A stretch of 64,000 nt of DNA from Limimaricola hongkongensis DSM 17492 (GTDB lineage: Bacteria; Pseudomonadota; Alphaproteobacteria; Rhodobacterales; Rhodobacteraceae), in NCBI RefSeq assembly GCF_000600975.2, contig NZ_KK088649.1:394702-458701 (forward strand), read 5' to 3'. How positions within the stretch are numbered: position 1 is the stretch's first letter; each line of letters opens with the position of its first letter. The translations under genes were made by a program, and so were the position numbers. Positions 4,953 through 60,743 of the stretch are shown here, one piece after another. The notes below the pieces were generated by a model, which did not search any database, was not told the DNA's origin, and saw only the letters and a list, made by a program, of their open reading frames with translations.

Positions 4953-5037
4953 GGCGGGATTTGCGTATTTGCGGAATGGTGAAACAGCCGGGCGCGCCAT
5001 TTGCCTTTCACCATTCCGCAAATACGCAAATCCCGCC
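4953..5037. repeat. Dispersed palindromic element, copy 1 (perfect pair)
   Basis: The arms 4953-4984 and 5006-5037 are perfect 32-base inverted copies around a 21-base spacer, which itself contains the palindrome GGCGCGCC (4991-4998). The core is GCGTATTTGCGGAATGGTGA. Four related copies lie at 12578, 23101, 27707 and 60614. There is no T-run after the dyad, so it is not a standard intrinsic terminator, although it sits right after petR. Confidence 0.9.
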
Positions 5038-10237: not shown

Positions 10238-11092
10238 CTATTTCTCCGGCTTTCGCGATAACAACGCGGCGAGCCCTGAGCGGTAATCGGGATGGATCAG
10301 CCGCACGCCCAGCTCGTCCTTGATCCGGTCGTTTCGAACCTTTTTCGATTCCGCGTAGAAGCTGCGCGCCATCGGCGTCATCTCGGCCTTTTCGAAGTCC
10401 AGTTCGGGCGGCACCGGCAGGCCGAGCAGCTCGGCGGCATGGGCGATGACGTCCTGCGGCGGGGCGGGGTCGTCGTCGCACAAATTGTAGATCGCGCCGG
10501 GGTTCGGGCGGTCGATGCTCGCCTTCAGCACCTGCGCGATGTCGTCGACATGGATGCGGCTGAAGACCTGGCCGGGCTTGACGATGCGCCGGGCCGTGCC
10601 CGCGCGGACCTTGGCAAAGGGACCGCGGCCGGGGCCGTAGATGCCCGCAAGGCGGAAGATGTGCAAAGGCAGGCCGGGGACCGCCCGCCATGCGGCCTCG
10701 GCCTCGACGCGGGCCTTGCCGCGCTTGGTCGCCGGGCGCAGCTCGCTGTCCTCGTCGACCCAACCGCCGTCGCGGTCGCCATAGACGCCGGTTGTGGAGA
10801 GGTAGCCCACCCATGCGAGGCGGTTTGCCCGCGCCGCGATGGCGCCCTGCCAGTCGCGCAGCACCGGGTCGCCATCCGCGTCGGGCGCGGCGGAGATCAG
10901 CAGGTGCGTGGCCGCGTCGAGCGCGGGCGTCAGGTCGCTGCCGGGCCAGATCGCAGGTTCGACGCCCGTCGCGCGCAGCGCCTCGGCCTTGTCGTCCGAA
11001 CGGGTGGTGCCGATGACGCGCCAGTCGTCGGGCAGGAGGCGGGCGAGGGCGCGGGCGGAATAGCCGTGGCCAAAGGAGAGCAGCGTTTTCAT
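10238..11092 (-). CDS. NAD(P)-dependent sugar epimerase/reductase-like protein (extended SDR)
   Basis: 284 residues, Rossmann fold. The N-terminus MKTLLSFGHGYSARALARLL has a loosened Gly-rich nucleotide loop (GHGYSA). STTGVYGDRDGGWVDE with a later RGKARVEAE resembles the YeeZ/YwnB-like extended SDR group, where the usual YxxxK pair is altered. HIFRLAGIYGPGRGPF is the substrate-side block typical of epimerases. Function is not assignable beyond the fold. It lies 24 bases downstream of the DUF1810 gene on the same strand. Confidence 0.75.
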   Translation of the reverse strand: MKTLLSFGHGYSARALARLLPDDWRVIGTTRSDDKAEALRATGVEPAIWPGSDLTPALDAATHLLISAAPDADGDPVLRDWQGAIAARANRLAWVGYLSTTGVYGDRDGGWVDEDSELRPATKRGKARVEAEAAWRAVPGLPLHIFRLAGIYGPGRGPFAKVRAGTARRIVKPGQVFSRIHVDDIAQVLKASIDRPNPGAIYNLCDDDPAPPQDVIAHAAELLGLPVPPELDFEKAEMTPMARSFYAESKKVRNDRIKDELGVRLIHPDYRSGLAALLSRKPEK

Positions 11093-19639: not shown

Positions 19640-19738
19640 GGGCGCTCTCCTTGTGGCGGGGCCGGTGTAGCGCGGGGCGCGCGCCGGGGAAAGGGCGGGG
19701 GGCTTGCGCGCGGCCCGCGATGGCGTAGTGTCGCGCCC

Positions 19739-19818
19739 ACCTCGGGGGGCCACTGGCTGAGATGCGCGTCGCGCGGACCCGTTGAACCTGAACCGGATCA
19801 CACCGGCGGAGGGAAGGT
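19739..19818 (+). promoter_or_regulatory. TPP riboswitch (THI element)
   Basis: The conserved TPP-aptamer blocks are in order: closing stem P1 ACCT (19739-19742) with AGGT (19815-19818), CTGAGATG (pyrimidine-binding arm, 19757-19764), then ACCCGTTGAACCTGAACCGG, CACCGGCGGAGGGAAG. It ends about 49 bases before the thiB start and would turn down thiBPQ when TPP is plentiful, most likely at translation since no terminator hairpin with a T-run is seen. The presence upstream of a thiamine ABC transporter supports it strongly. Confidence 0.95.
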
Positions 19819-19866
19819 ACGGGACACATGCTCCTCCTTGCTCTTCGCCCGCATTGGAGGACGACT

Positions 19867-23100: not shown

Positions 23101-23171
23101 CATGCGTATTTTCGGAATGGTGAAGAGGGGAGGGCGCGTTTGGCCTTCACCGCTCCTCAAATACGCAGATG
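23101..23171. repeat. Dispersed palindromic element, copy 3 (imperfect pair)
   Basis: The left arm 23101-23125 carries GCGTATTTTCGGAATGGTGA; the right arm 23145-23171 is its diverged inverse. The pair lies between the convergent thiQ and petC genes, next to the petC terminator. Confidence 0.85.
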
Positions 23172-27706: not shown

Positions 27707-27770
27707 GCGTATTTTTGGAATGGTGAAAGGGCAGCGCGGCGCTCCAATTCACCATTCCGCAAATACGCAT
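27707..27770. repeat. Dispersed palindromic element, copy 4 (near-perfect pair)
   Basis: The left arm 27707-27727 (GCGTATTTTTGGAATGGTGA) and the right arm 27748-27770 (inverse of GCGTATTTGCGGAATGGTGA) differ at two positions of the core, with a 20-base spacer. The element lies just beyond the 3' end of mtaB and upstream of the GST gene. Confidence 0.88.
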
Positions 27771-29991: not shown

Positions 29992-30067
29992 GGGCCGTTA
30001 GCTCAGTTGGTAGAGCAACTGACTTTTAATCAGTGGGTCGCAGGTTCGAATCCTGCACGGCTCACCA
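29992..30067 (+). tRNA. tRNA-Lys (anticodon UUU)
   Basis: 76 bases with encoded CCA (30065-30067). The acceptor stem GGGCCGT pairs with ACGGCTC (one G-U pair), the D-arm is AGCTCAGTTGGTAGAGC, the anticodon loop CTTTTAA has TTT at 30025-30027, and the T-arm is CAGGTTCGAATCCTG. Confidence 0.97.
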
Positions 30068-32516: not shown

Positions 32517-32593
32517 GGCCCCGTGGCTCAACTGGATAGAGCAATCCCCTCCTAAGGGATAGGTTGCAGGTTCGAGTCCTGCCGGGGTCGCCA
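32517..32593 (+). tRNA. tRNA-Arg (anticodon CCU)
   Basis: 77 bases with encoded CCA. The acceptor stem GGCCCCG pairs with CGGGGTC, the D-arm is GGCTCAACTGGATAGAGC, the anticodon stem is ATCCC/GGGAT with loop CTCCTAA (CCT at 32551-32553), and the T-arm is CAGGTTCGAGTCCTG. A TTGACG box at 32478-32483 is suitably placed for a -35 element, but the -10 is poor. Confidence 0.96.
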
Positions 32594-36390: not shown

Positions 36391-38729
<2,339 letters not shown>

Positions 38730-38738
38730 GCGCGGAGC

Positions 38739-39794
38739 CTAGCCAGTGGCCCCCGACCCCTCAACGGCAAGATGCGGCGCCGCTGCGTCGTGCACCTTGC
38801 GCATCGCCGTGGGCAGCGCGCCGGGGCGGAACGCGGAGGCCGACACGAAATGCCCGCGCTCGGGGTTCGAGGGCGGCAGCTCGGCCACCATGACGGTCAG
38901 GGTCAGCGCGAAATGGGTGAAGACGTGCCGCGCCTCGCCCACCTCGCGCCACGCGGCGGGGGCGGGGGGCGCGGGCCGGGGCGCCTCGTTCCAGTCCGAG
39001 CCGGGAAAGCCCAGCATCCCGCCCAAGAGCCCCTTTTCGGGCCGGGTCTCCATCAACCACGCGCCGTCGGCGCGCCGCCCGACATAGGCGAAGCCGCGCC
39101 GTTCGGGCTTGGGCTTCTTCGCCGCCTTGACCGGGCGCTGCGCTTCGGTGCCGCGCTGGCGGGCAAGGCAAGGCGCGCGCAGCGGGCAGATGCCGCAGGC
39201 GGGGCTCTTCGGCGTACAGATCGTCGCACCGAGATCCATCACCGCCTGCGCGTGGTCGTCGGGCCGGGCGTGCGAGGTCAGCCGCGCGGCATGGGCGGTG
39301 AGCTCGGGCTTGGCGGCGGGCAGCGGCGTTTTTACGTCGAACAGCCGCGACATGACCCGCTCGACATTGCCGTCCACCACCGTCTCGGGCCGGTCAAAGG
39401 CGATCGCGGCCACGGCGGCGGCGGTGTAGGGGCCGATCCCGGGCAAGGCGATCAGCGCGTCATGCGTGTCGGGGAATCGCCCGCCGTGTTCGGCGACCAC
39501 GGCGCGCGCGCATTTGAGCAGGTTGCGGGCGCGGGCGTAATAGCCAAGCCCCGCCCATTCGGCCATGACATCGGCGTCCGGCGCGGCGGCGAGATCGGCC
39601 ACCGTCGGCCACAGCGCGGTGAACCGTTCGTGGTATTTTCGCACGGCGGCCACGGTGGTCTGCTGCAGCATCACCTCCGACAGCCAGACGCGGTAGGGAT
39701 CGGGGCGAAGGCCCGCCGCGCGATCGGCCGGGCCGGTGCGCCATGGCATGATGCGCGCGTGGCGGTCGTACCACGCCAGCAGCGCGGCGGTCAT
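38739..39794 (-). CDS. mutY: A/G-specific adenine DNA glycosylase
   Basis: 351 residues. It removes adenine mispaired with 8-oxoguanine. The catalytic Glu is in SEVMLQQTTV, the HhH-GPD motif is LIALPGIGPYTAAAVAAIAFDRPETVVDGNVERV with the catalytic Asp, and the [4Fe-4S] cysteines follow the C-x6-C-x2-C-x5-C spacing in CTPKSPACGICPLRAPC. A C-terminal NUDIX-like domain (about 225-340) recognises 8-oxoG: WLMETRPEKGLLGGMLGFPGSDW. ATG 39794 has AGGA eight bases upstream. It is divergent from dciA across 66 bases. Confidence 0.95.
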   Translation of the reverse strand: MTAALLAWYDRHARIMPWRTGPADRAAGLRPDPYRVWLSEVMLQQTTVAAVRKYHERFTALWPTVADLAAAPDADVMAEWAGLGYYARARNLLKCARAVVAEHGGRFPDTHDALIALPGIGPYTAAAVAAIAFDRPETVVDGNVERVMSRLFDVKTPLPAAKPELTAHAARLTSHARPDDHAQAVMDLGATICTPKSPACGICPLRAPCLARQRGTEAQRPVKAAKKPKPERRGFAYVGRRADGAWLMETRPEKGLLGGMLGFPGSDWNEAPRPAPPAPAAWREVGEARHVFTHFALTLTVMVAELPPSNPERGHFVSASAFRPGALPTAMRKVHDAAAPHLAVEGSGATG

Positions 39795-39860
39795 TTCGGT
39801 ATCCTGCACGTCGTCCCCTCTGGTCCGGCCCCCCCTCCATCTAGTAGGGTGGGCGCTGCC

Positions 39861-40370
39861 ATGAAACAGCGACGCCACTCCTCCACACGCGGTTTTGCGC
39901 AGGCCTCGGGCCTGTTGCAGTCGCGCATCCGCACCGCCTCCGAGGCGCGGGGATTCGCGGTGACGCGGCTTCTCACCCACTGGGCCGAGATCGTCGGCGA
40001 GGACACGGCTCGGATCGCGCAGCCGGTCAAGGTCGGCTACGGGCGCGACGGGCTGGGCGCGACGCTGACGCTTTTGACCACCGGGGCGCAGGCGCCGATG
40101 CTGTCGATGCAGGCCGAAACGATCCGCGAGCGGGTCAATGCCTGCTACGGCTACCGCGCGATCTCCAAGGTGCGGATCACCCAGACCGCGCCGACCGGTT
40201 TCGCCGAAGGGCAGGCCGCCTTCGCCCCCGCCCCGACACCCGAACCGCCCCGGCCCGACCCGCAGCTGAAGGCGCAAGCGGCGAAGACCGCCGACGGCGT
40301 GGCGGACACGGAATTGCGACTTGCGCTCGAGGCCTTGGCTGCCAATGTCCTGTCCAAACGCCGGAATTGA
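39861..40370 (+). CDS. dciA: DUF721 / DciA-family protein (predicted replicative helicase loader)
   Basis: 169 residues. The DUF721 KH-like domain (about 25-110) reads RGFAVTRLLTHWAEIVGEDTARIAQPVKV, then LTLLTTGAQAPMLSMQAETIRERVNACYGYRAISKVRI. The rest is a disordered Pro/Ala-rich tail. DciA proteins load or assist the DnaB helicase in bacteria without DnaC or DnaI, which includes most alphaproteobacteria; the assignment is by family. It is followed 13 bases later by dsbA, so both are likely on one transcript. Confidence 0.85.
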   Translation: MKQRRHSSTRGFAQASGLLQSRIRTASEARGFAVTRLLTHWAEIVGEDTARIAQPVKVGYGRDGLGATLTLLTTGAQAPMLSMQAETIRERVNACYGYRAISKVRITQTAPTGFAEGQAAFAPAPTPEPPRPDPQLKAQAAKTADGVADTELRLALEALAANVLSKRRN

Positions 40371-48551: not shown

Positions 48552-48658
48552 GGCGGCGGCCTCGGTCTGGCGTTTCTCGCGGCGGCTTGGCATGGGGAAC
48601 AGATGGGGCGCGGGCCGCGCCCCGGCAAGCGCGGCGCGGGGCCGCAGGAGGGCTGTGC

Positions 48659-49842
48659 ATGGCGCGGGCACTGGTGATCGGCGGCGGACCGGCGGGGCTG
48701 ATGGCGGCGGAAGAGCTGGCGGCGGCGGGCTGCGAGGTGACGCTGGCCGAGCAGATGCCCACCATGGGTCGCAAGCTGCTGATGGCGGGCAAATCCGGGC
48801 TCAACCTCACCAAGTCCGAGCCGCGCGCGCAGTTCGACGCGGCCTTCGGCGAGACGCCCGACGCATTGCGCGCGGCGCTGGACGCCTTCGGCGCCGAGGC
48901 GGTGCAGGGCTGGGCCCGCGACCTTGGCCAGGAGGTGTTCACCGGCTCCACGGGCCGGGTCTTTCCGACGGGCATGAAGGCCTCTCCGCTGCTGCGCGCA
49001 TGGCTCGCGCGGTTGCAGGGGGCGAGGGTCGACCTGCGCCCCCGCTGGCGGTTCGACGGCTGGAAGGATGGCGAGGCGCTGTTCGACACGCCGGAGGGGG
49101 CACGGGCCGTCGCGGCGGATGTCACGGTGCTGGCGCTGGGCGGGGCGAGCTGGTCGCGGCTCGGCTCGGACGGGCGCTGGGCGGCGCTGCTGGCCGGGCA
49201 GGTCGCGCCGTTTTGCCCCGCGAACATGGGGTTCGGCGTCGACTGGTCGGCGCATATGCGGCCCCATTTCGGCGCGCCGGTCAAACCCGTGGCGCTCATC
49301 GCCGGGGCGCGGCGGGTGCGCGGCGAATGCGTGATCTCGGCGCGCGGGCTGGAGGGCGGCGGGATCTACGCGGTGTCGGCGGATCTGCGCGACGGTGCGC
49401 CGCTCGCGCTCGACCTCGTGCCCGATCTCGACGCGGCCGAGCTGGCGCGCAGGCTCGCGCGGCCGCGCGGCAAGACCAGCCTGTCGAACCATCTGCGCAA
49501 ATCGCTCAGGCTCGATCCGGTGCGCATGGCGCTGCTGCACGAATGCGCCCGCCCCCTGCCGGGCGATCCGGCGGCGCTGGCGGCGCGGATCAAGGCGCTG
49601 GAGATACCGCTCACCGGGCCGCACCCGATCGACGAGGCGATCTCCACGGCGGGGGGCTTGCGCTTCGATGCGCTCGACGATGGCCTGATGCTGCGCCGAC
49701 CGGCCCGGGGTGTTCGCCGCGGGCGAGATGCTCGACTGGGAGGCGCCGACGGGCGGCTACCTGATCACCGCCTGCCTCGCCACGGGCCGCCATGCGGGCC
49801 GCGCCGCCGCGGATTGGGCGAAGACCGCGCATCGACCCTAGC
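48659..49842 (+). pseudogene. FAD-dependent flavoprotein (TIGR03862-like), frame broken near the 3' end
   Basis: From ATG 48659 (AGGAGG seven bases upstream) the frame encodes a HI0933-like flavoprotein: VIGGGPAGLMAAEELAAAG (FAD site), GRKLLMAGKSGLNLTKSEP, VLALGGASWSRLGSDGRW and [14 protein letters not shown]. Around 49697-49710 the expected end ([38 protein letters not shown]) is in another frame and stops at 49842. One extra base in the GC-rich stretch cggcccgggg explains it. Without correction the open frame would run on antisense-like into yjbH, which is not plausible. A sequence error is as likely as a real mutation. Function of the family is unclear. Confidence 0.82.
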
Positions 49843-60613: not shown

Positions 60614-60636
60614 GCATGCGTATTTGGGGAACAAAG
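60614..60636. repeat. Dispersed element, copy 5 (single diverged arm)
   Basis: GCGTATTTGGGGAA at 60618-60631 agrees with the core GCGTATTTGCGGAA except at one base, and then diverges. It lies between the divergent MFS and zapE genes, like copy 2. Confidence 0.5.
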
Positions 60637-60743
60637 TTGCCTGCCGGAGCGCGCCGGGCGGGGGCGTTTCGCCGACGGGACAGGGGCGTTTCGCGGGCGG
60701 CGCATCTTTGCAATGGGCGGGGCGGCGGCTATGTCGCCTCTCC

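What the first reader, a model, noticed from the sequence alone, without database searches (positions are those of the whole stretch)
4953..5037. Dispersed palindromic element: pairs past gene 3' ends, single arms between divergent genes
Five copies of a core GCGTATTTGCGGAATGGTGA occur in 64 kb, only between genes. Copies 1, 3 and 4 (4953, 23101, 27707) are inverted pairs, each just beyond a gene 3' end (petR, petC/thiQ, mtaB); copy 1 has perfect 32-bp arms. Copies 2 and 5 (12578, 60614) are single arms between divergent genes. None has a T-run and the arms are AT-richer than their surroundings. The pattern points to a selected element (transcript 3'-end structure, binding site, or a mobile REP-like unit). 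I am not aware of a named family with this core, but I could not search.
Basis: partly seen in the sequence, partly recalled or inferred. Interest (0 to 1): 0.78.

Follow-up and report, generated by a model that had tools for sequence, protein, structure and literature searches.

The report
Small RNA matching its genome's repeats
The short repeats between genes in this marine bacterium are spelled out, in two separate pieces, by a small RNA gene elsewhere in the same genome, and in many related genera the RNA and the repeats differ together, which points to an undescribed RNA-directed system.

Summary
The repeat is real and larger than the window: 112 copies in the 3.19-Mb genome (Limimaricola, probably L. 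hongkongensis), control 0; 1 of 97 arms with gene context overlaps a gene call. Each arm reads XYZ-TATTT-NNN-Q; here XYZ = GCG, Q = GAATGGTGAA. L. cinnabarinus has arms at the same places, but 67 of 69 orthologous arms read GAATGGTGAA here and GAAAGATGAA there, so this is not recent independent insertion.

The key lies outside the window. A conserved structured RNA gene (core in 91 of 149 family genomes; no Rfam match) carries XYZ in its hairpin loop (92 of 93 flanking arms, 8 triplets) and Q in the stretch after the hairpin; 106 of 140 mismatches are of G.U type, 4 reverse. Arms predicted from RNA guides in three other genera: 28 of 28 new arms share at least 9 of 11 bases with a guide of their own genome.

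I infer two-part base pairing. Its effect (boundary at gene ends, or spread of a REPIN-like element) and the protein partner are unknown. Placement between divergent genes, as for the window's single arms, is rare elsewhere. The searches listed found no description.

The parts
4963..4983 (+). Arm 1a, class I: GCG-TATTT-GCG-GAATGGTGAA (left arm of inward pair)
5007..5027 (-). Arm 1b, class I (right arm of inward pair; with 1a part of the perfect 32-bp inverted repeat 4953-4984/5006-5037)
   Evidence: the L. cinnabarinus orthologue carries the other dialect GAAAGATGAA
12587..12607 (-). Arm 2, class I, single, between an ORF read here as topoisomerase IB (recalled resemblance only) and adenine deaminase (divergent)
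   Evidence: intact with the other dialect in four relatives, decayed in two, absent in one
23104..23124 (+). Arm 3a, class I (left arm of inward pair after a ThiQ-like gene)
23146..23166 (-). Arm 3b, class I, degenerate second half (GAGCGGTGAA)
27707..27727 (+). Arm 4a, class I (left arm of inward pair, between an MtaB gene and a GST-like gene)
   Evidence: the same gap holds an outward pair in G437-G440, one arm degenerate in G439 and G440
27748..27768 (-). Arm 4b, class I (right arm of inward pair)
60618..60637 (+). Arm 5, class II: GCG-TATTT-GGG-GAACAAAGT, single, between an MFS-like gene and ZapE (divergent)
   Evidence: fits the guide of the second RNA locus (G000:C7:275019-275041, minus strand), which lies outside the window

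Best explanation
The arms are the dispersed partner sites of a small structured RNA gene that is widespread in the Rhodobacteraceae. The RNA begins with a strongly conserved hairpin (CGGUACA-GGCU-G-XYZ-AGCC-GAUG-RCCG). The last three loop bases XYZ equal the first three bases of the arms, and the roughly 11-nt stretch after the hairpin equals the arm's second half Q, often with G where the arm has A (a G.U wobble with the arm's other strand). Arm = XYZ-TATTT-NNN-Q, in the same order as in the RNA.

Inferred mechanism: the RNA, probably with a protein that reads the constant TATTT, pairs through loop and guide with the strand complementary to the arm, in DNA or in a transcript of it, at up to about a hundred intergenic places, mostly beside gene 3' ends. 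When the guide changes in a lineage, the genome's arms change too.

Shown here: the sequence relation, its covariation across genera, prediction of unseen arms, the hairpin, and the concerted difference at orthologous sites. Inferred: transcription, direct pairing, the partner protein, and the effect. My leading guess for the effect is that bound sites act as a boundary between neighbouring genes (about 0.35); a spreading REPIN-like element is nearly as likely (about 0.3).
For: Copies: 112, control 0. Concerted difference: of 69 orthologous arms 67 read GAATGGTGAA here and GAAAGATGAA in L. cinnabarinus, one reads GAATGGTGAG here, one is a class-II arm here; bases 16 and 18-21 are 97-100% identical, flank positions 26-77%, mean 56%, ungapped. 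RNA core in 91 of 149 family genomes, reversed control in 8. Hairpin on 51 distinct RNAs: 99.3% of cells paired (shuffled 95.7%, 0 of 500 as high), 4 pairs with changes on both sides (2 of 500 as high); G.U pairs fit only this strand. Guide against flanking arms: 9.4 and 9.6 of 11 against 7.5 shuffled, sd 0.14. Loop triplet against arm triplet: 92 of 93, shuffled mean 44, max 54 in 2000. Of 140 mismatches, 103 arm-A/guide-G and 3 arm-C/guide-U, 4 reverse transitions, 30 transversions. Guides noted beforehand: 28 of 28 new arms in three genera share at least 9 of 11 bases with a guide of their own genome; guides of five other genomes reach this in at most 1 of 9, 5 of 10 (G110, which shares a guide) and 0 of 9. 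G110: two RNAs (loops GGAG, GGGG), 30 arms, 18 GGAG of class I and 12 GGGG of class II, no exception. P. denitrificans: six GGG arms that did not fit the first RNA's loop were explained afterwards by a second RNA with loop GGGG and guide AAACGGAAAGAG. P. versutus: two RNAs, both loop GGGG, and 8 of 8 arms GGG. Arm-rich genomes (4 or more): 51 of 55 have the RNA, against 27 of 74 with none. G436: few arms, a decayed one at window site 2, and a broken RNA hairpin (-10.1 against -19.5 to -22.3 kcal/mol).
Against: No transcript was observed; I found no expression data for the RNA. The wobble excess is concentrated at a few guide positions, so a G needed in the RNA for another reason could create it. 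With G.U allowed the match is unspecific: at 10 of 11, G031 guides also fit 9 of 9 G005 arms, own-genome guides fit 8 of 9 of them, and G110 guides fit 10 of 10 G031 arms; only strict identity separates genomes. The exact spelling noted beforehand was found in 16 of 28 arms; one of two G005 guides and one of three G031 guides had no exact arm. One of 93 arms (L469) disagrees with its loop. G107 has two apparently intact RNAs but few arms of the spelling searched. Four arm-rich genomes (G086, G118, G121, G129) gave no hit to the core. With one arm per genome over 24 genomes the mean was 10.1 of 11 (shuffled 8.9), but 6 scored 9 or less; not all their RNAs were fetched, and one of these arms (L197) may be coding. 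In many class-a loci the downstream arm can pair with the guide inside the same fold, so part of the covariation could serve an internal stem. No protein partner was found.
Confidence: 0.72

Rival explanations
1. REPIN-like selfish element: inward arm pairs are mobile hairpins, the RNA-bearing unit (RNA gene between inverted arms) is the master copy, and an unidentified enzyme guided by the RNA moves them; singles are decayed copies.
For: The RNA gene has a guide-matching arm on at least one side in 52 of 53 loci, often on both; inward pairs favour one outer distance (59-64 in 17 of 24 here, 60-63 in 11 of 14 in L. cinnabarinus) and a GCGCGC or GGCGCC centre (18 of 21 and 9 of 13); arms are intergenic and rare between divergent genes, as harmless insertions would be; two sets of two pairs share both spacer triplets.
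Against: No Y1_Tnp match in 7 of 8 genus genomes; 56 of 87 own stretches match stretches around L. cinnabarinus arms over at least 1200 nt, and arms there differ in concert while flanks have diverged; the class-a RNA locus keeps one place, with two neighbour families shared by 23 and 22 of 35 loci.
Confidence: 0.3
2. Antisense small RNA acting on transcripts: the RNA pairs with the pyrimidine-rich strand in mRNA 3' regions and controls their stability or 3' ends.
For: G.U wobble suits RNA-RNA pairing; predicted own-guide duplexes are the strongest in each row of a 5 x 5 comparison; 13 of 49 single arms begin 2-15 nt after a stop codon with the pairing strand in sense.
Against: In 19 of 49 own-genome singles both neighbours run so that the pairing strand is antisense (+/+), against 12 of 49 with it in sense (-/-); an inverted pair puts both strands into every transcript across it.
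Confidence: 0.25
3. Protein-binding site with co-evolving specificity; the RNA is only a decoy or mimic of the site.
For: Long two-part motif with a 3-base gap, constant TATTT, and inverted pairs at a preferred spacing.
Against: Loop and guide copy the variable bases of the arm, and most mismatches (106 of 140) are of wobble type with only 4 of the reverse type, as pairing predicts.
Confidence: 0.12
4. DNA uptake or packaging signal with dialects, as in the Neisseriaceae and Pasteurellaceae (recalled, not tested).
For: Dialects differ between species at the same sites; inverted pairs occur near gene ends.
Against: About 1 copy per 25-30 kb, far fewer than recalled for known uptake signals, and an RNA carrying the dialect has no place in those systems as I recall them.
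Confidence: 0.05

Closest known systems
REP/REPIN elements with RAYT transposase
   Same: Short intergenic repeats, single or as inverted pairs, with several sequence classes per genome (family features recalled).
   Different: No Y1_Tnp match in 7 of 8 genus genomes; the single arm is not itself a hairpin; an RNA gene carries the arm's variable bases; orthologous sites differ in concert.
Base-pairing bacterial small RNAs (e.g. StsR of Rhodobacter sphaeroides)
   Same: Small structured RNA with an exposed stretch, antisense pairing with G.U, possibly many targets.
   Different: Targets are up to about a hundred near-identical intergenic repeats in either orientation; two separate recognition segments; guide and targets differ together between genera.
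RNA-guided DNA recognition (TnpB/IscB/Cas, IS110 bridge RNA, TIGR-Tas; all recalled)
   Same: A scaffold RNA with variable segments and a constant motif beside the target (here TATTT).
   Different: No effector gene recognised beside the RNA; the triplet sits in a hairpin loop; a 3-base unmatched spacer; targets are native dispersed repeats.
DNA uptake sequences with dialects (Neisseriaceae; recalled)
   Same: Species dialects and inverted pairs at gene ends.
   Different: Far fewer copies, almost only intergenic, and coupled to an RNA gene.

Membership tests
REP/REPIN-RAYT | RAYT (Y1_Tnp) gene in the genome | tested here: not met
   PF01797: 0 in own genome (92.85% complete); 1 of 8 genus genomes (G440); rings in 5 of 14 control genomes
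REP/REPIN-RAYT | Intergenic short repeats, singles and inverted pairs | tested here: met
REP/REPIN-RAYT | Single element is itself an imperfect palindrome | tested here: not met
   By eye, the single arm GCGTATTTNNNGAATGGTGAA has no internal inverted repeat (sequences)
Intrinsic terminator | GC-rich hairpin followed by a T-run | tested here: inconclusive
   No T-run after the paired arms of window sites 1 and 4; in the family-wide form a GC-rich hairpin precedes GGNGTATTT; a separate terminator-like hairpin lies near some arms
Known Rfam RNA family | Match at gathering score | tested here: not met
   No match at the arms or at 5 Limimaricola RNA loci; a lax search of 20 loci gave 4 matches, none at the RNA
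Base-pairing small RNA | Conserved structured RNA gene with exposed complementary stretch | tested here: met
   (structure predicted, not probed)
Base-pairing small RNA | Transcribed; pairing changes target expression | not testable with these tools
   No expression data; only a positioned TTAA(C/G) box at -28/-29 (34 of 44 class-a loci) and terminator-like stems with T-runs after the guide in Thiothrix and Roseibium plasmid copies (read by eye)
RNA-guided DNA-binding system | Effector protein partner | not tested
   Neighbours of the class-a RNA locus are thiolase-, GST-, small RHH-like- and acyl-CoA-dehydrogenase-like (names by recall)
DNA uptake sequence | Sequence-specific DNA uptake | not testable with these tools
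   needs transformation assays

The most novel reading that the evidence does not exclude
A new kind of RNA-guided system: a stably inherited small RNA with two programmable segments (a hairpin-loop triplet and an 11-nt guide) directs an unknown protein to about a hundred native genomic sites per species, reading a constant TATTT between the two paired parts; changing the guide re-addresses, and by RNA-directed conversion or selection rewrites, the whole set of sites in place.
Probability: 0.4. Interest if true: 0.97.

Novelty: categorically new. Interest (0 to 1): 0.92.

Why it matters
About a hundred near-identical sites per genome that track the sequence of one small RNA, with the same relation seen in dozens of genera, would be an unusual case of concerted evolution and a natural two-part RNA guide. 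The relation can be tested directly by swapping three loop bases or the guide. It may also explain what sits beside many genes in the Rhodobacteraceae, a major marine family.

Tried and rejected
RAYT/REP: rejected. Chance: rejected (controls; eight genomes show one control hit each, eight). Hairpin stem as the conserved feature: rejected, since the spacers differ in 30 of 34 pairs. Gene-transfer-agent packaging motif: only a lead; the paper wanted (PMC5786225) is not held, and passages of PMC6854486 gave nothing. The RHH-like 70-aa gene beside the class-a RNA locus as the specificity protein: its sequence hardly changes while the dialect does, and it has no Pfam or NCBIfam match at E up to 1. 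StsR as the same RNA: passages of PMC8307010 gave no link. HRC-8-4, a Rhodobacterales motif between cco operons: section read, different place and shape. Viral or phage carriers: no exact match to one pattern in viral contigs and no blastn match in phages.

Literature: ten answered searches over open-licence papers only; most subscription papers are not held. I saw listings, passages of PMC4572655, PMC6854486, PMC8307010, PMC5107571, PMC2864571 and PMC8632094, and one section of the last; no whole paper.

Rows dropped: L454 before the RNA counts (3 mismatches, no arms nearby); L494 (it flanks an RNA) and the already held L201 from the 28-arm test; arms without a same-orientation partner from the 69-arm count. 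In that count bases 1-8 and 12-14 are 100% by construction; only 15-21 are independent. In one search the 93 arms were chosen by guide match, not by triplet. The table was typed from the printed tables. Gene calls come from a simple codon-usage caller that misses some genes.

Full report
What is in the window. Four sites carry the reported core, seven matches in all, none expected by chance. The fifth reported site has the same first half but a different second half, GAACAAAGT. Site 1 is a perfect 32-bp inverted repeat with a 21-bp centre.

The genome. The window lies at 394,702-458,701 of contig 4 of a 3,188,840-base genome. That genome has 112 matches of the 20-mer with up to 3 mismatches, 56 on each strand, against none for the reversed pattern. 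GCGTATTTNNNGAA has 127 matches, control 0. The size is close to that of Loktanella hongkongensis (3,198,444 bp, passage of PMC4572655), so that species is likely but not proven.

Anatomy of an arm. In the stretches held, 99 arms read GCGTATTT-NNN-GAATGGTGA and 20 read GCGTATTT-NNN-GAAC, mostly GAACAAAGT. Inward pairs favour one outer distance: 59-64 in 17 of 24 here, 60-63 in 11 of 14 in L. cinnabarinus. The centre holds GCGCGC or GGCGCC in 18 of 21 and 9 of 13 pairs. The two spacers differ in 30 of 34 pairs, so the arms look separately conserved, not the hairpin. Of 49 class-I single arms, 19 lie between genes both running in the arm's direction, 12 both against it, 16 convergent and 2 divergent; the caller is simple and misses genes, including one beside window site 2.

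Concerted difference in place. In L. cinnabarinus XM1 (G437) 87 arms read GAAAGATGA. Of 87 own stretches 56 match stretches around G437 arms over at least 1200 nt, median identity 88%; only stretches around G437 arms were fetched, so the other 31 are not evidence of absence. At 69 orthologous arms of the same orientation, 67 read GAATGGTGAA here and GAAAGATGAA there, one reads GAATGGTGAG here, and one is a class-II arm here; bases 16 and 18-21 are 97-100% identical, flank positions 26-77% (mean 56%) ungapped. At one ancient site five species show four variants of these two bases. At window site 2 the arm is intact, with the other dialect, in four relatives, decayed in G436 and G441, and absent in G107; at window site 4 an inward pair here corresponds to an outward pair in four relatives, one arm degenerate in two of them. 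This speaks against recent independent insertion.

Family-wide form. GCGTATTTNNNGAA is near control level in the other genomes of the class sampled (289 genomes with our own). With one mismatch the class-I core is found in 4 of 149 family genomes. A related form, CCCCCGGNGTATTT, is enriched in the family: 75 of 149 genomes, up to 114 copies, with one control hit in each of 8 genomes. These arms lie beside a GC-rich hairpin; in G110, 9 of 29 end within 30 nt of an opposing stop codon.

The RNA gene. The ancient site contains a 24-nt block, GCGGTACAGGCTGGCGAGCCGATG, the same in four of five Limimaricola species (one change in G436) and followed directly by a version of the dialect; a second block in this genome is followed by the class-II second half. 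The 23-nt core, with up to 3 mismatches, is found in 91 of 149 family genomes, 1-4 copies each, with 8 genomes showing a control hit. On 51 distinct sequences 99.3% of cells pair against 95.7% shuffled, four pairs show changes on both sides, and G.U pairs fit only this strand as the RNA. In class-a loci TTAA(C/G) lies 28-29 nt upstream in 34 of 44 (39 of 44 within -50..-25; random windows 1.2%); it resembles a CtrA half-site by recall only. In 9 class-b loci an arm itself lies at about -43, and 4 of these 9 have TTAA(C/G) too. Among 35 loci, acyl-CoA-dehydrogenase-like and thiolase-like neighbours (names by recall) recur in 23 and 22. Rfam has no match there; the window itself holds no copy, the best model hit having E = 1.4.

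Beyond the family. A blastn search of plasmids with a second RNA found core copies in Azospirillum, Roseibium and, in the Gammaproteobacteria, Thiothrix (E from 1e-5 to 7e-3). In Azospirillum brasilense the upstream sequence GGGGTACTT-CGG-CACCAACCTTGAC faces loop GGGG and guide CACCGACCTTGAC, again with G for A; in the Thiothrix and Roseibium copies I saw no arm, but a terminator-like stem with a T-run follows the guide (read by eye).

RNA matches arms, twice. First, the guide after the hairpin matches the flanking arms: 9.4 of 11 bases (47 arms) and 9.6 of 11 (42 arms), against 7.5 with sd 0.14 when shuffled. Second, the hairpin loop G-XYZ gives the arm's first triplet in 92 of 93 arms with 8 different triplets; shuffling gives 44 on average and 54 at most. 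Of 140 mismatches among 1,023 positions, 103 are arm-A/guide-G and 3 arm-C/guide-U, 4 are reverse transitions and 30 transversions. This asymmetry is expected if the RNA pairs with the arm's other strand, though it is concentrated at a few positions.

Tests away from the RNA gene. In G110 the two RNAs have loops GGAG and GGGG and different guides; its 30 dispersed arms are 18 GGAG arms fitting the first and 12 GGGG arms fitting the second. For G005, G016 and G031 I noted the expected arms from the RNA guides first and then fetched arms: 28 of 28 new arms share at least 9 of 11 bases with a guide of their own genome, 16 of 28 in exactly the spelling noted. Guides of five other genomes reach 9 of 11 in at most 1 of 9 (G016 arms), 5 of 10 (G031 arms, by G110, which shares a guide) and 0 of 9 (G005 arms). 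With G.U allowed the test loses specificity: G031 guides then fit all 9 G005 arms at 10 of 11, own-genome guides 8 of 9. With one arm per genome over 24 genomes the mean, G.U allowed, is 10.1 of 11 against 8.9 shuffled, but six genomes score 9 or less.

Paracoccus. The orthologous RNA has loop GGAG in P. denitrificans and GGGG in P. versutus with the same guide; in the stretches read (250 and 200 kb) arms of this class are GAG in 3 of 3 and GGG in 8 of 8, flanking arms included. Six further P. denitrificans arms, GGG with AAACGGAAA, first looked like a contradiction, since G.U would let them fit that guide. A later search found a second RNA there with loop GGGG and guide AAACGGAAAGAG, and a second P. 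versutus RNA with loop GGGG and guide CAACGGAGAAG, matching its CAACGAAGAAG arms.

Presence and loss. Genomes with at least 4 arms have the RNA in 51 of 55 cases, those with none in 27 of 74, those with 1-3 in 13 of 20; some of the 27 have loops whose arms the pattern could not spell (matched sequences). In G436, with few arms, the RNA hairpin has lost its fold. The RNA of G441 was not looked at.

Reading. The arms and the RNA are two parts of one system, and two-part base pairing is the best account of how the RNA knows its sites. What the pairing does is open. The arms' dislike of divergent gaps fits both a boundary function at gene ends and a tolerated spreading element. Orientation speaks mildly against a purely antisense role. 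How a hundred sites come to differ together is unexplained: selection by a shared guide, or RNA-directed conversion, would each do it.

Limits. No transcript, protein partner or phenotype is known. Only 53 family RNA hits were compared with their arms, plus the plasmid copies. Expression data and most subscription literature were out of reach. The novelty rating rests on the ten paper searches listed in Tried and rejected and on Rfam 15.

Noticed in passing
window 19733-19831 (+); tRNAs 29992-30064 (+) and 32517-32590 (+): TPP riboswitch and two tRNA genes found by the Rfam scan.
   Followed up: no
L238, L099, L062, L091, L342 (beside the class-a RNA locus): A strongly conserved 70-aa protein that looks like a ribbon-helix-helix protein (recall) but has no Pfam or NCBIfam match; its cluster occurs at 14 of 35 RNA loci.
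   Followed up: partly
L512 (Thalassococcus sp. S3 plasmid pS3A, about 10262-10313): A copy of the RNA gene, loop GCCG with a matching CCG arm, lies on a 95-kb plasmid inside a carotenoid gene cluster.
   Followed up: partly
L523, L527 (Thiothrix plasmids), L524 (Azospirillum brasilense), L525 (Roseibium porphyridii): Copies of the RNA core outside the family, in Thiothrix even in another class; dispersed arms were not searched for there.
   Followed up: partly
window 38729-39861 and 48593-49710: Stretches of about 1.1 kb without confident gene calls by the simple caller; could be atypical genes.
   Followed up: no
G440:C241:15032-15391 (L094): The only Y1_Tnp-family ORF among 8 genus genomes; not linked to the arms here.
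   Followed up: no
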